From positions 1-43,644 of the forward strand of contig JAGXGS010000072.1 of NCBI GenBank assembly GCA_024636585.1: a DNA stretch of 43,644 nucleotides. The letters are read 5' to 3'. The stretch is from Thiogranum sp. (lineage in GTDB: Bacteria; Pseudomonadota; Gammaproteobacteria; DSM-19610). Positions 6,861 to 31,507 of the stretch are shown here, in pieces; within the stretch, counting starts at the first letter, position 1, and the number at the start of each line of letters is the position of its first letter. A program made the translations under genes and the position numbers. Under the pieces are notes generated by a model. The model was given only the letters and a program-made list of their open reading frames with translations, made no database searches and was not told the origin of the DNA.

Positions 6861-8150
6861 TCAGGCGGCTTTTTGCACCAGCACGCCCTGCTCGCCCTCG
6901 CTCTTTGCAATCAGAACTGCACCGCAGGAATCACTGAAGACATTCACTGCGGTGCGGAACATGTCCAGTATCCGGTCCACTGCGAGAATCAATCCGATCG
7001 CCTCGATCGGCAAACCGATGGTGGTAAGAATGATGGTTATCGCCACCAGGCTTGCGGCCGGTATGCCGGCGACGCCTATCGATGTCAGCAACGCTACCAT
7101 CACCACAGTGAATTGCGTTACAAAGCTCAGCTCCAGACCGTAGGCCTGAGCGATAAACATCGCGGCCACACATTCATATAAAGCTGTACCATCCATGTTG
7201 ACGGTAGCCCCCAGTGGCAACACGAAACTGGCGGTACGATTCGACACACCGGCATTATCGCGCACACACTCCATGGTCAGCGGCAGTGTTGCCGATGAGG
7301 ATGCCGTGGAAAACGCCGTCAGCAACGCCGGCAACATAGCCCGATAGTGAGCCAGCGGACTGACACCGGCAACGAACTTCAGCACCAGCGGCAATGTCAC
7401 CAGCACATGGAAGGCGAGCGCCAGCAGTACGCTCAGGGTGAAAGTTCCGAGGCTGACCACCAGTTCGTTGAGCTGCTGCGCATCCAGTCCGGCAACGGTT
7501 TTCGCTACCAGTCCGAACACCCCGAGCGGTGCGAACTTCATAATCAACAGGGTAATCTGCATCATCACGTCGTAGACGCCCTGCCAGAAGTTTCCCAGCA
7601 GGATTCCATTTTCGCGCTTGATGCGGGTCATGAAGTACCCGAACATGAGACTGAAGGAGATGATGCCCAGCATCTGCCCTTCGGCAGCCGCCATTACGAT
7701 ATTGGGCGGAAGCATGCTGGTGAAGATACCGGTGAGATCAGACGCAGAGCGGCCCTGAACTTTTTCCGCAACTTCCGCTACCGCGTCCTGATTGAGACCC
7801 AGAACCTCTCCGGCGGGCCGGCCATCGATTATTCCCGGGTTGAGCAGATTCACCAGCAGCAGACCGATCAGAATAGCCGCGAGACTGCTGGCAAGGTAGA
7901 ACAACAGCGTTTTACCGCCCAGCCGGCCCAGATTGCCGGAGCTACCGATGCCAGCCATCCCGGTAATGATGGATGACATGATCAGCGGCACAATGATCAT
8001 CTTCAGGGCATTCAGGAACAGGGTGCCGACGAAGTCATACACGGCGTATGCCTGTACACCCAGAACCGTACCTTCAGTTCCGCTCAGGCGGCCGGCGACT
8101 AACGCCACTATCAGAGCGATCAGAATCTGCCAGTGAAGCTTGAGCTTCAT
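6861..8150 (-). CDS. Cation:dicarboxylate/glutamate symporter (DAACS family, GltP/DctA-like)
   Basis: Inner-membrane secondary transporter that takes up glutamate, aspartate or C4-dicarboxylates with H+ or Na+. At 429 residues it has normal family length. It shows many hydrophobic segments, the serine-rich re-entrant loop STASSSATLP (Ser284-286) and the substrate/cation motif NMDGT (residues 318-322). GltP and DctA cannot be separated by eye, so I give no symbol. Its ATG lies 21 bp after the ppiD stop on the same strand, so it may be read from the ppiD transcript. No strong Shine-Dalgarno is visible. It converges on fabI with 11 bp between the stops and no obvious terminator. Confidence 0.9.
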   Translation of the reverse strand: MKLKLHWQILIALIVALVAGRLSGTEGTVLGVQAYAVYDFVGTLFLNALKMIIVPLIMSSIITGMAGIGSSGNLGRLGGKTLLFYLASSLAAILIGLLLVNLLNPGIIDGRPAGEVLGLNQDAVAEVAEKVQGRSASDLTGIFTSMLPPNIVMAAAEGQMLGIISFSLMFGYFMTRIKRENGILLGNFWQGVYDVMMQITLLIMKFAPLGVFGLVAKTVAGLDAQQLNELVVSLGTFTLSVLLALAFHVLVTLPLVLKFVAGVSPLAHYRAMLPALLTAFSTASSSATLPLTMECVRDNAGVSNRTASFVLPLGATVNMDGTALYECVAAMFIAQAYGLELSFVTQFTVVMVALLTSIGVAGIPAASLVAITIILTTIGLPIEAIGLILAVDRILDMFRTAVNVFSDSCGAVLIAKSEGEQGVLVQKAA

Positions 8151-28141: not shown

Positions 28142-29329
28142 CTAAAGCCCACCCGCCAGATCTGCGATCAGATCATCGATTGTTTCCAGGCCCACGGCAA
28201 TGCGTACCAGCCCGTCGGAAATCCCTGCCTCAGATCGCTGCTCGGGTGTAAGGCGACCGTGTGTGGTGGTGGCCGGATGCGTAATCGTGGTCTTGGTGTC
28301 GCCGAGATTGGCAGTGATCGAGCATATACGGGTCGCATCGATCAGCTTCCAGGCAGCTGGCTGTCCGCCCGCAACTTCGAAGGCGATAATGCCACCGAAA
28401 CCTGACTGCTGAAGACTGGCGAGCTGGTGCTGCGGATGTGACGGCAAGCCAGGATAATAAACAGCCTTGATTTGCGGCTGTTCCTGCAGCCATTCCGCCA
28501 GCTTCTGCGCGGAAGCGCAATGCGCCTGCATGCGGATCTCCAGTGTTTCAAGACCTTTCAGAAACACCCAGGCATTGAAAGGACTCATCGTCGGCCCGCA
28601 GGTGCGCAAAAAACCATAGACACCCTGGCCCACGACGTCCTTTGAACCCACCACCGCGCCGCCGACGCAACGGCCCTGCCCGTCCAGATACTTGGTAGCC
28701 GAATGTATAACCACGTCCGCACCGAGTGCCAGAGGCCGCTGCAGCGCCGGGGTACAAAAACAGTTATCGACGACCAGCAGGCTGTCCTGGGCATGCGCCA
28801 GCTTTGCCAGCGCCGCAATATCGCCGACTTCAGTCAATGGATTAGACGGTGTTTCGACAAACAGCAGGCGGGTTTCCGGGCGTATCGCCTGCTCCCACGC
28901 GGCCAGGTCATCGAGAGCGACAAAGCTGGTCTGGATACCGAATTTCTCCAGGTAATTCGTGAACAGCAAGGTGGTGCTGCCAAAGATGCTACGCGAAGAA
29001 ACGATATGATCCCCGCTCTTTAGCAATCCCGCACAACAGGCATAGATCGCCGACATCCCCGAAGCGGTAGCCACACAACATTCGCCGCCTTCGAGCGCCG
29101 CCAGTCGTTCCTCGAATGTGCGCACCGTAGGATTTGTAAAGCGAGAATAAATATTTCCGGGCTCTGCACCGCTGAAACGCGCTGCCGCAGCCGCCGCATT
29201 TTCGAACACATAACTGGATGTCGGGAAAATCGGTTCGGCGTGCTCCGCCTCCGCAGTCCGGTGCTGACCGGCGCGCACCGCCAGAGTGGCGAAGCCGAAG
29301 CCAGGCGTTCCTGTTTGTTTTTCAGACAT
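28142..29329 (-). CDS. metZ: O-succinylhomoserine sulfhydrylase MetZ
   Basis: Pyridoxal-phosphate enzyme making homocysteine from O-succinylhomoserine and sulfide: direct sulfhydrylation, bypassing cystathionine. I start it at the ATG at 29329 (MSEKQTGTPGFGF), preceded by GGGGAGAG; the frame extends 22 codons upstream but those overlap the riboswitch terminator. The 395 residues contain YSRFTNPT, SGMSAIYA, the cofactor Asp region VVDNCFCTP and the Schiff-base Lys213 in SATKYLDGQGR. Late motifs LGDTKTTITHPATTTH and the ending SDGLVRIAVGLE are typical of the Cys/Met metabolism PLP family. MetZ rather than cystathionine gamma-synthase is supported by the purF-metZ neighbourhood known in Pseudomonas. 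Expression is predicted to be shut off by S-adenosylmethionine through the leader. Confidence 0.94.
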   Translation of the reverse strand: MSEKQTGTPGFGFATLAVRAGQHRTAEAEHAEPIFPTSSYVFENAAAAAARFSGAEPGNIYSRFTNPTVRTFEERLAALEGGECCVATASGMSAIYACCAGLLKSGDHIVSSRSIFGSTTLLFTNYLEKFGIQTSFVALDDLAAWEQAIRPETRLLFVETPSNPLTEVGDIAALAKLAHAQDSLLVVDNCFCTPALQRPLALGADVVIHSATKYLDGQGRCVGGAVVGSKDVVGQGVYGFLRTCGPTMSPFNAWVFLKGLETLEIRMQAHCASAQKLAEWLQEQPQIKAVYYPGLPSHPQHQLASLQQSGFGGIIAFEVAGGQPAAWKLIDATRICSITANLGDTKTTITHPATTTHGRLTPEQRSEAGISDGLVRIAVGLETIDDLIADLAGGL

Positions 29330-29354
29330 GCCGCTCTCCCCGGGAATCAGACAT

Positions 29355-29389
29355 AAAAAAACCCGCTTCCGGGCAACAACGAAAGCAGG
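29355..29389 (-). terminator. Attenuator terminator of the metZ leader
   Basis: Minus strand: CCTGCTTTC (29389-29381) pairs with GGAAGCGGG (29370-29362), nine pairs including two G-U, followed by seven T (29361-29355). It lies 6 bases after the SAM-II aptamer and about 25 bases before the metZ ATG. Its 5' arm overlaps an alternative antiterminator pairing. It could also act as the purF terminator. Confidence 0.85.
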
Positions 29390-29395
29390 CGCCAT

Positions 29396-29446
29396 CGCTT
29401 TAGCCGGATTTATAAAGCGCCCGCAAGCTGGATTTCAAATCGGCGC
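29396..29446 (-). promoter_or_regulatory. SAM-II riboswitch aptamer controlling metZ
   Basis: The minus-strand 51-mer has the SAM-II (metX-alpha) layout. P1 is GCGCC (29446-29442) with GGCGC (29421-29417). The 5' side of the loop carries conserved GATTT, followed by CCAGCTTGC. After P1 come TTTATAAA and the conserved GCTAAAG. GCTT (29428-29425) can pair with AAGC (29400-29397) as the pseudoknot. The order and these short conserved strings match the published SAM-II aptamers I remember (GAUUU, CUUGCA, UAAA, GCUAAA). SAM-II elements normally sit before Met genes, mainly in Alphaproteobacteria. Confidence 0.85.
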
Positions 29447-29450
29447 AACA

Positions 29451-29485
29451 GCAAAAGATTAGTCAGCCGGCGCGTCGGGTGTCAA
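29451..29485 (-). promoter_or_regulatory. Sigma70 promoter of the metZ riboswitch leader
   Basis: Minus strand: perfect TTGACA (29485-29480), 16 bases, ACTAAT (29463-29458). The -35 overlaps the purF stop codon (29484-29482). The predicted start near 29451 is about 5 bases before the aptamer, as expected for a 5'-terminal SAM-II element. Confidence 0.65.
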
Positions 29486-30993
29486 GCGCTATTGTGCAGT
29501 TCGATGACTTCGTGATCTGACATGCGTCGGTCTTCCTTGGCCAGATCACTACGCTGCCGCTCGAGGTTCTCGAGGTATTCCTCACCGACACCACCGGTCA
29601 CGTACTCGCCGGTAAATACTGAACAATCGAAATTGGTGATTTTTTTGTTGCCGCGCCGCACCGCAGCAATCAAATCCTCGAGATCCTGAAAAACAAGCCA
29701 GTCAGCACCGATTTCAGTCGCTATCTGCTCGACGGTCCGGTCGTGGGCAATCAATTCCGACTTGGTCGGCATGTCGATGCCGTAAACATTGGCGAAGCGT
29801 ACCGGCGGCGCGGCCGAGGCGAAGTAGACTTTTTTTGCTCCGGCCTCGCGCGCCATCTGGATAATTTGCCCTGAGGTCGTGCCTCGCACAATAGAGTCAT
29901 CAACCAGCATCACGTTCTTGCCGCGGAATTCCAGCTCAATCGCATTCAGCTTCTGGCGCACGGATTTCTTGCGCTGTTGCTGACCCGGCATAATGAACGT
30001 GCGGCCGATATACCGGTTCTTGATGAAACCTTCCCGGTATTTCACACCGAGATTGAAGGCGAGTTGCAGCGCTGCGGTTCGACTGGTATCCGGTATCGGT
30101 ATCACGACATCGATATCATGATCGGGCCGCTCTCTGACAATCTTCTGAGCAAGCTTTTCACCCATGCGCAGGCGCGCCTTGTACACAGATACATTATCGA
30201 TGATCGAATCCGGTCGAGCCAGGTACACATGCTCGAATATGCAGGGTGCGTACTGCGGATTCTCAGCACACTGCTGCAACACCATGCTGCCGTCATGGCG
30301 AATGAAAATCGCCTCACCGGGCTGCACATCAGCAATAAGGTCGAAGCCGAGCGAATCCAGCGCCACACTCTCCGATGCCACCATGAACTCGGTGCCCTCG
30401 GGTGTTTCCCGGCTGCCGTATACCAATGGCCGAATGCCGTGTGGGTCACGGAACGCCACGACTCCATAGCCGGTAATCATTGCCACAGCCGCATAGGCAC
30501 CGCGACAGCGCCGATGCACTCCTGCTATTGCAGTGAAGACGTCAGTCTCGTTTATTTCCAGCTTGTTGAGACGCTGCAACTCGTGGGCGAGCACGTTCAA
30601 CAGGACTTCCGAATCCGATTCAGTATTGATGTGCCGCAGATCTTCGCGGAACAGGTTGTCTTTGAGCTCTTCGGAATTAATCAGATTGCCGTTGTGCGCC
30701 AGGCTGATGCCGTAAGGAGAATTTACGTAGAACGGTTGCGCCTCAGCAGAGCTTTCGCAGCCGGCTGTCGGATAACGCACGTGCCCGATTCCCATGTTAC
30801 CGCGCAAGCGCAGCATATGGCGGGTATGGAATACGTCGCGCACCAGTCCATTGTCCTTGCGCAGATACAGCTTGCTACCCTCGCCGGTCATGATACCCGC
30901 CGCATCCTGTCCGCGATGCTGCAATACCGTCAGCGCGTCGTAAATGGACTGGTTAACCTCTCGATGGGCTACGATGCCTACAATGCCACACAC
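29482..30993 (-). CDS. purF: Amidophosphoribosyltransferase PurF
   Basis: First committed step of purine synthesis: PRPP + Gln to 5-phosphoribosylamine. I start it at a GTG (30993) so that the next residue is the nucleophilic Cys2 (CGIVGIVAH). The upstream open codons would bury that cysteine, which must be N-terminal after Met removal. GGAAGG precedes the GTG. The 503 residues comprise an N-terminal Ntn glutaminase domain ([26 protein letters not shown]) and a C-terminal phosphoribosyltransferase domain with the PRPP loop [14 protein letters not shown]. There is no propeptide before Cys2. It lies 19 bp after cvpA and before metZ, as in Pseudomonas. Confidence 0.97.
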
Positions 30994-31012
30994 AGTAACT
31001 ACCTTCCGAACA

Positions 31013-31507
31013 TCAATATTGAATATGTTGGGCAATATCGGCCGGCAGAAAACTGCGCAACCACAATGCCATGTCCTGAAAATGCTTCAACAGGGTCGAT
31101 TCGTTCCACCACGCGTCCTGCGGCAGGCCGGTCAGTCCGGCCAGCATAACCAGAACTGCAACAATTACCACGCCGCGCGCAATACCGAACAGCATGCCGA
31201 GTGCCCGATCGGTTCCGCTCAATCCGGTTTTCGATACCAGCTGGCCGGCCAGAAAATTAATCAGCCCGCCGAGCAGAACGACGCACACGAACAGCGCCGT
31301 AAATGCCACCACGGCGCGGATCGATGGCGTTTCGATCCAGCGCACCAGCCAGTCTGCCAGCTCCTGGAAAAACAGCATGGCCACCCAGAGCGCAATGATC
31401 CAGCTGGCCAGAGAAATGGCTTCCTTGACGAATCCGCGCCACAGACTGAGCAGCGCCGAAACAGCAATGATTGCCAGAATGGCAAAATCGGCCCAGATCA
31501 ACGGCAT
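31013..31507 (-). CDS. cvpA: CvpA family membrane protein
   Basis: Small inner-membrane protein of the colicin V production family, tied by gene order to purF in many proteobacteria; its molecular role is still unclear. The 164 residues show four hydrophobic segments (about 6-24, 31-47, 63-87 and 104-124), with the conserved first loop [16 protein letters not shown] and the later [23 protein letters not shown]. The start [11 protein letters not shown] is the usual CvpA N-terminus. It follows the SPOR gene by 85 bp with no clear terminator. Confidence 0.93.

What the first reader, a model, noticed from the sequence alone, without database searches (positions are those of the whole stretch)
29355..29485. 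Complete SAM-II riboswitch with visible antiterminator/terminator switch before metZ
All parts can be read on the minus strand: promoter TTGACA-16-ACTAAT, then an aptamer with P1 GCGCC/GGCGC, conserved GATTT, CTTGC, TATAAA and GCTAAAG, and a terminator 6 bases later. The aptamer's P1 3' strand extended as GCGGGCGC (29424-29417) is complementary over 8 bases (one G-U) to GCGCCTGC (29392-29385). The last five bases of that element are the 5' arm of the terminator. This predicts that SAM holds P1, frees the terminator and turns metZ off. SAM-II is mainly known from Alphaproteobacteria and often described as acting on translation; transcriptional attenuation in a gammaproteobacterium is less usual.
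Basis: partly seen in the sequence, partly recalled or inferred. Interest (0 to 1): 0.75.

Follow-up and report, generated by a model that had tools for sequence, protein, structure and literature searches.

The report
SAM-II riboswitch with terminator before metZ
The RNA leader of a methionine-synthesis gene in a Thiogranum-like bacterium looks like a known kind of SAM sensor that probably stops transcription when SAM is plentiful; it belongs to a widespread gammaproteobacterial group that the standard RNA-database cut-off often misses.

Summary
Rfam's SAM-II model (RF00521) matches window 29456-29379 (-) end to end, but at 30.2 bits, under its gathering score of 36; it is the genome's best match (next 14.8 bits). 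Relatives carry the case. In 74 pattern-picked aptamers P1, which the pattern did not require, pairs in all 74, with changes on both sides in 3 cells. A model built from them hits 183 of 369 class genomes; RF00521 over its cut-off hits 30 of 369. Of 110 such loci, 95 precede metZ, metK, metF, metN or aspartokinase.

A terminator follows in 133 of 179 distinct leaders. SAM-triggered termination of metZ (OFF) is the likely mechanism: inferred, not shown. The predicted common competitor is the pseudoknot strand GCUAAAGC against the terminator arm: 102 of 133 leaders, shuffles 169 of 1330; P1 version 5 of 133, shuffles 97 of 1330. "Transcriptional SAM-II is unusual" contradicts published work. New member of a known kind.

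The parts
29482..31035 (-). purF (amidophosphoribosyltransferase), upstream gene; its stop codon overlaps the -35 box
   Evidence: ORF; TIGR01134 532.7 bits, cut-off 350
29458..29485 (-). promoter-like TTGACA-16-ACTAAT (10 of 12)
   Evidence: sequence; such pairs (9/12 or more) in 143 of 179 leaders, 62 of 895 shuffles
29396..29446 (-). SAM-II aptamer: P1 29446-29442/29421-29417; pseudoknot P2 29430-29423 with 29404-29396; likely pair G29422-C29406
   Evidence: RF00521 30.2 bits over 29456-29379; own model R1 73.3 bits, trained in part on this sequence; pair counts over 74 relatives
29417..29424 (-).
29385..29392 (-). GCGCCTGC, partner of GCGGGCGC; its last six bases lie in the terminator 5' arm
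   Evidence: full partner in 5 of 14 close leaders
29361..29390 (-). intrinsic terminator hairpin, 11 pairs; T run 29361-29355 follows
   Evidence: terminators in 133 of 179 related leaders
29334..29341 (-). GGGGAGAG, likely ribosome-binding site of metZ
   Evidence: sequence
28142..29329 (-). metZ, O-succinylhomoserine sulfhydrylase, regulated gene
   Evidence: NF006003 693.5 bits, cut-off 522; TIGR01325 600.1 bits, cut-off 510

Best explanation
The leader between purF and metZ carries a SAM-II riboswitch acting by transcription attenuation. Transcription starts a few bases before P1. With little SAM, aptamer strands pair with the 5' arm of the downstream terminator hairpin and RNA polymerase reads into metZ. 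With SAM bound, P1 and the P2 pseudoknot (CAGCUUGC with GCUAAAGCG) lock those strands, the terminator forms and metZ transcription stops. In most relatives the predicted competing strand is the pseudoknot's 3' strand (GCUAAAGC with GCUUUAGC in the arm). In this window the arm reads GCUUUCG and the spacer carries GCGCC, so the P1 strand (GCGGGCGC) is an additional and, in short transcripts, stronger predicted competitor. Shown here: sequence elements, conservation, model matches, predicted folds. Inferred: SAM binding, termination, OFF direction, and which competitor acts in the cell.
For: RF00521 end to end, best match of the genome; R1 73.3 bits; all 16 same-genus genomes searched have an RF00521 match at E<=0.1; P1, not required by my pattern, paired in all 74 aligned aptamers, with changes on both sides in 3 cells, and col 31/49 G-C 69, A-U 4, other 1; promoter, terminator and arm motifs conserved; CCYGC in the arm in 117 of 133 against 4 of 37 other terminators, GCTTTnG 95 of 133 against 1 of 37; pseudoknot strand to arm pairing 102 of 133 against 169 of 1330 shuffles; methionine and SAM genes downstream; S. 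meliloti metZ precedent.
Against: Below the Rfam gathering score. Some relatives with the aptamer have no terminator by my scan (46 of 179), and one of the closest MetZ relatives (L037, 85%) has no aptamer match. No measurement of SAM binding or termination exists for this RNA.
Confidence: 0.88

Rival explanations
1. One reading: the P1 3' strand (GCGGGCGC with GCGCCTGC) is the antiterminator, so closing P1 alone is the switch.
For: Present and 8 bp long here; best fold of transcripts ending 29385 to 29373; duplex energy -18.3 with the arm against a mean of -10.8 over 133 leaders.
Against: Full partner in 5 of 14 close leaders, and only 3 of those 5 reach more than 3 expected pairs (4.86, 3.77, 7.01; the others 0.02, 0.06). 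Over 133 leaders it is no commoner than in shuffles: 5 of 133 against 97 of 1330.
Confidence: 0.3
2. Translational control: SAM binding masks the ribosome-binding site rather than ending transcription.
For: Some SAM-II RNAs act on translation (metA in S. meliloti; metX crystal RNA).
Against: The likely RBS (29341-29334) lies beyond the terminator and outside the aptamer; terminators recur in 133 of 179 related leaders.
Confidence: 0.06
3. A decayed or ligand-changed SAM-II relative that no longer senses SAM.
For: 30.2 bits against a cut-off of 36; a close MetZ relative has no aptamer match, so loss occurs (L037).
Against: GATTT, TTGC, AAAT and GCTAAA are intact; 73.3 bits with R1; most same-lineage aptamers also score under 36 with RF00521, which fits a model biased to Alphaproteobacteria.
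Confidence: 0.04

Closest known systems
SAM-II riboswitch (Rfam RF00521, SAM_alpha; metA element, Corbino 2005, PMC1273637)
   Same: One stem P1 plus pseudoknot P2, conserved core, near-consensus promoter a few bases before P1, terminator before a methionine gene (section 11 and passages read)
   Different: Scores below the gathering cut-off; P1 nearly fixed as GCGCC/GGCGC in this lineage; terminator arm complementary to both the P1 and the P2 3' strands
SAM-II before metZ of Sinorhizobium meliloti (Scheuer 2022, PMC9373788)
   Same: Same class, same kind of gene; predicted SAM-dependent termination, leader RNA of about 100 nt (abstract and passages)
   Different: Alphaproteobacterium; its proposed fold is in a supplement I did not see
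metXZ element of Betaproteobacteria (Leyn 2014, PMC4239095)
   Same: Pseudoknot plus terminator/antiterminator before metXW or metZ (passages); R1 hits lie before MetX genes in L260 and L263
SAM-V riboswitch (Huang and Lilley 2018, PMC6061858)
   Same: Similar pseudoknot and SAM site (passages)
   Different: Translational; not among the RNA-family matches here up to E 10

Membership tests
SAM-II riboswitch (RF00521) | Covariance-model match at or above the gathering score | tested here: not met
   30.2 bits, cut-off 36, although full length and E 2.4e-5. I treat this as a database threshold, not a biological feature: R1 finds 183 of 369 class genomes, RF00521 over cut-off 30 of 369
SAM-II riboswitch (RF00521) | P1 stem | tested here: met
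   GCGCC/GGCGC here; 5 of 5 pairs standard in all 74 relatives, changes on both sides in 3 cells
SAM-II riboswitch (RF00521) | P2 pseudoknot between P1 loop and 3' tail | tested here: met
   C29430-G29396, G29428-C29397, C29427-G29398, U29426-A29399, U29425-A29400, G29424-C29403, C29423-G29404 from the sequence; 92.6% of cells paired over 74 rows. Four of the nine pairs lie in motifs my search pattern required and so are no evidence; C23-G59, not required, is invariant
SAM-II riboswitch (RF00521) | Conserved core (GAUUU, UUGC, AAAU, GCUAAA) | tested here: met
   All present in the window. The equivalent SAM-V triple and its near-identity with SAM-II are from passages of PMC6061858; residue-by-residue mapping not done
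SAM-II riboswitch (RF00521) | Upstream of methionine or SAM genes | tested here: met
   metZ here; metZ 77, metK 10, metF 5, aspartokinase 2, metN 1 of 110 class loci (labels checked)
SAM-II riboswitch (RF00521) | Binds SAM and discriminates against SAH | not testable with these tools
   needs in-line probing or calorimetry
Transcription-attenuating riboswitch | Terminator and a mutually exclusive alternative pairing | tested here: met
   terminator and competing pairings in predicted folds; action in the cell not tested
SAM-V riboswitch | Model match | tested here: not met
   not among the 10 RNA-family matches up to E 10

The most novel reading that the evidence does not exclude
The window is one member of a large gammaproteobacterial SAM-II lineage that the Rfam cut-off mostly misses (R1 183 of 369 class genomes, RF00521 over cut-off 30 of 369). 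The lineage controls metZ, metK, metF, metN, aspartokinase and, in single loci, metE and metX, with a nearly fixed P1 and a terminator arm (CCYGCUUUAGC) complementary to both the P1 and the P2 3' strands. The separately published betaproteobacterial metXZ element may be the same RNA.
Probability: 0.7. Interest if true: 0.45.

Novelty: new member of a known kind. Interest (0 to 1): 0.32.

Why it matters
It is a solid example of a known switch outside its textbook lineage and shows how a cut-off can hide most members in another group. A 2014 survey with Rfam profiles found SAM_alpha only in Rhizobiales and Rhodobacterales (PMC4239095, passages), whereas half of the class genomes sampled here match a re-seeded model. 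The window's own genome has no MetJ match (83% complete), so such a switch may carry methionine control there. Close leaders with and without the extra GCGCC are natural tests of which aptamer strand throws the switch.

Tried and rejected
Other Rfam matches of the region (BcKCsr2, anti-hemB, PyrR and others) are far below their cut-offs and were taken as chance. ATG 29395 as the metZ start: rejected, no SD seen and it lies before the terminator; the spot reads GATGGC or GACGGC in close leaders. Covariation between the base before GCTAAA and the terminator arm: 56 pairs against 46.9 expected, p 0.018, but two of three control registers gave p 0.003 and 0.028, so no claim. P1-strand antiterminator as the family-wide switch: not supported. 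A narrower definition of the arm gives the pseudoknot-strand pairing in 54% of 133 instead of 77% (against 47). Tandem SAM-II pairs looked new, but 44 are in print, some with mixed platforms (PMC9481103, passages).

Limits. Aptamers for the alignment were picked by a pattern that required GATTT[AG], TTGC and GCTAAA, so invariance of those letters is by construction. Of 195 pattern matches 179 distinct platforms were kept; at least one (L221, + strand) is a chance match. R1 was trained on loci of at least 14 of the 183 genomes it hits (counted). The census of 110 loci used listed, high-scoring hits; 30 loci from 40 lower-scoring genomes gave metZ 13, metN 5, metK 1, unassigned 11. Null terminators number only 37, from flanks of the 80 metZ loci. 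Related leaders are not independent, so p-values are optimistic. Papers were searched in one open-licence library only.

Full report
What is there. On the minus strand between purF (29482-31035) and metZ (28142-29329) lies a leader with a promoter-like pair, a SAM-II aptamer, an intrinsic terminator and a separate ribosome-binding site. The gathering-threshold Rfam scan lists only seven tRNAs in the window; with an E-value threshold RF00521 aligns end to end at 30.2 bits, cut-off 36, E 2.4e-5. In the whole genome it is the best match at E 6.8e-5; the next has 14.8 bits.

Is it SAM-II? Fifty-six genomes (the window's own, 16 of the same genus, 3 of the same family, 36 more of the class) were searched with RF00521: 33 of 56 match at E<=0.1, including all 16 of the same genus, but only 2 of 56 pass the cut-off. 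In that search 3 of 14 unrelated control genomes also ring at this loose threshold, none over the cut-off. I took 80 named metZ relatives and further loci from relatives, picked aptamers by a pattern and aligned 74 distinct ones. The pattern required GATTT, TTGC and GCTAAA, so only the rest is evidence. P1 forms standard pairs in every cell (5 pairs, 74 rows), with changes on both sides in 3 cells; the pair between the last loop base and the base two before GCTAAA is G-C in 69, A-U in 4, other in 1. Overall 95.3% of cells pair against 32-44% when partners are slid by 1-3 columns; 7 cells change on both sides (shuffled mean 1.4), and the covariation score exceeds all 500 shuffles, but the number of pairs with such a change (3) is reached by 43 of 500 shuffles and the number of further pair types by 195 of 500. 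Covariation is thin because most columns hardly vary. The 31/49 pair may be the one predicted by mutual information in Barrick and Breaker 2007 (PMC2258182, passages).

How common. A model from these rows (R1) finds matches at E<=0.001 in 183 of 369 class genomes; RF00521 finds 118 of 369 at that E-value and 30 of 369 over its cut-off (0 of 14 control genomes). At least 14 of the 183 supplied training rows. Of the 80 metZ loci 48 have an R1 match at E<=0.01, all 48 on the metZ strand; of the 32 without, L081 and L106 hold fewer than 50 upstream bases. L037, one of the closest MetZ relatives (85%), is among the 32. Of 110 loci fetched from listed class hits, tblastn assigns metZ 77, metK 10, metF 5, aspartokinase 2, metN 1, a MoxR-like ATPase 2, an unknown family 3, other 10. 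Reference labels were checked with NCBIfam: metK and metF reach their cut-offs; MetN and aspartate kinase are best families below cut-off; among the 'other', L219 is MetE-like, L216 homocysteine-methyltransferase-like and L238 CysB-like, all below cut-off. Thirty loci from 40 lower-scoring genomes gave metZ 13, metN 5, metK 1, unassigned 11; of these 11, L260 and L263 are MetX over cut-off and L255 is MetE-like. L265 (MetX) and L268 (MetE) were read by eye only.

Where from. The organism is therefore most likely of the genus Thiogranum; this is inference.

The expression platform. Of 179 distinct leaders 133 have a terminator by my scan. Its 5' arm contains CCYGC in 117 of 133 against 4 of 37 terminators elsewhere in the metZ loci, and GCTTTnG in 95 of 133 against 1 of 37 with equal windows. 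CCYGC fits the P1 3' strand (GCGGG) but also the terminator's own 3' arm; GCTTTAG fits the pseudoknot 3' strand (GCTAAAGC). Folding each leader up to the end of the terminator loop, P1 3' strand to arm reaches 4 or more expected pairs in 5 of 133 and pseudoknot 3' strand to arm in 102 of 133; in 12 of 133 neither reaches 3. With shuffled platforms the figures are 97 and 169 of 1330. A narrower arm definition gives 54% for the pseudoknot strand. As bare duplexes both strands bind the arms better than null arms (P1 -10.84 against -8.94, p 1.5e-4; P2 -5.68 against -4.64, p 4.7e-4), and the P1 strand binds more strongly than the P2 strand; it loses in the folds because P1 itself forms. Equilibrium folding without the pseudoknot cannot settle which acts during transcription.

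The window in particular. As the terminator 3' arm emerges, a fold with P1 and a hairpin from the AAGCGA region into the arm takes over. For the full leader from 29446 the best fold (-31.8) is a third structure, with forced terminator at -28.4 and forced P1 antiterminator at -27.3; from 29456 the best fold (-36.0) contains the full terminator. Among 14 close metZ leaders with terminators 5 have the full GCGCCTGC partner, with 4.86, 0.02, 3.77, 0.06 and 7.01 expected pairs.

Against the literature. SAM-II with terminators is standard: Corbino 2005 (PMC1273637; section 11 and passages; a figure legend lists Coxiella burnetii, so a gammaproteobacterial member was known), Barrick and Breaker 2007 (passages; sporadic in Gammaproteobacteria), Huang and Lilley 2018 (passages; most SAM-II transcriptional), Scheuer 2022 (abstract and passages). 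Leyn 2014 found SAM_alpha only in Rhizobiales and Rhodobacterales and described a separate metXZ element in Betaproteobacteria (passages). R1 hits before MetX genes suggest that element may be SAM-II; not proven here. My searches listed no paper on SAM-II before metK in Gammaproteobacteria that I recognised; that speaks only for those searches and that library.

Verdict. Real, well conserved, most probably functional; an ordinary member of a known class, in a lineage where the database cut-off under-reports it.

Noticed in passing
L251 (-) 7589-7757, L252 (+) 948-1116: Tandem SAM-II matches before an operon with, in L252, a MoxR-like ATPase (AAA_5, bpMoxR), a DUF2201/VWA_CoxE protein and a frame with S-adenosylmethionine synthetase domains. 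The second aptamer has no terminator by my scan; a CUCCCC/GGGGAAGGAG stem seen by eye could mask the ribosome site.
   Followed up: partly
L208-L212, L249, L250 (genome G264): One genome has 10 R1 matches; the five loci fetched each hold a tandem pair, before genes of unknown family or an HD-hydrolase-like protein (by eye), not methionine genes.
   Followed up: partly
L120, L213/L248, L217/L253, L230, L247: Further tandem SAM-II pairs, making 8 genomes in all with the two items above. Tandem SAM-II is in print: 44 cases, some with mixed platforms (PMC9481103, passages).
   Followed up: partly
L010, L022, L032, L117, L137, L139 and others: SAM-II before metK (SAM synthetase) in the window's genus and wider class (18; 10 of 110; L022 over the TIGR01034 cut-off). 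The window genome's own metK locus (L167) shows no R1 match.
   Followed up: partly
L037 upstream of metZ: A close MetZ relative (85%) has no R1 match; a GGCTGGCTGCTTTCG remnant of the terminator-arm type seems to remain by eye, suggesting loss of the switch.
   Followed up: no
window 29395-29393: An ATG in frame with metZ directly after the aptamer opens a 417-aa ORF through the terminator; a similar upstream in-frame ATG is seen in L013, L127 and L130. It could mislead gene calling.
   Followed up: no
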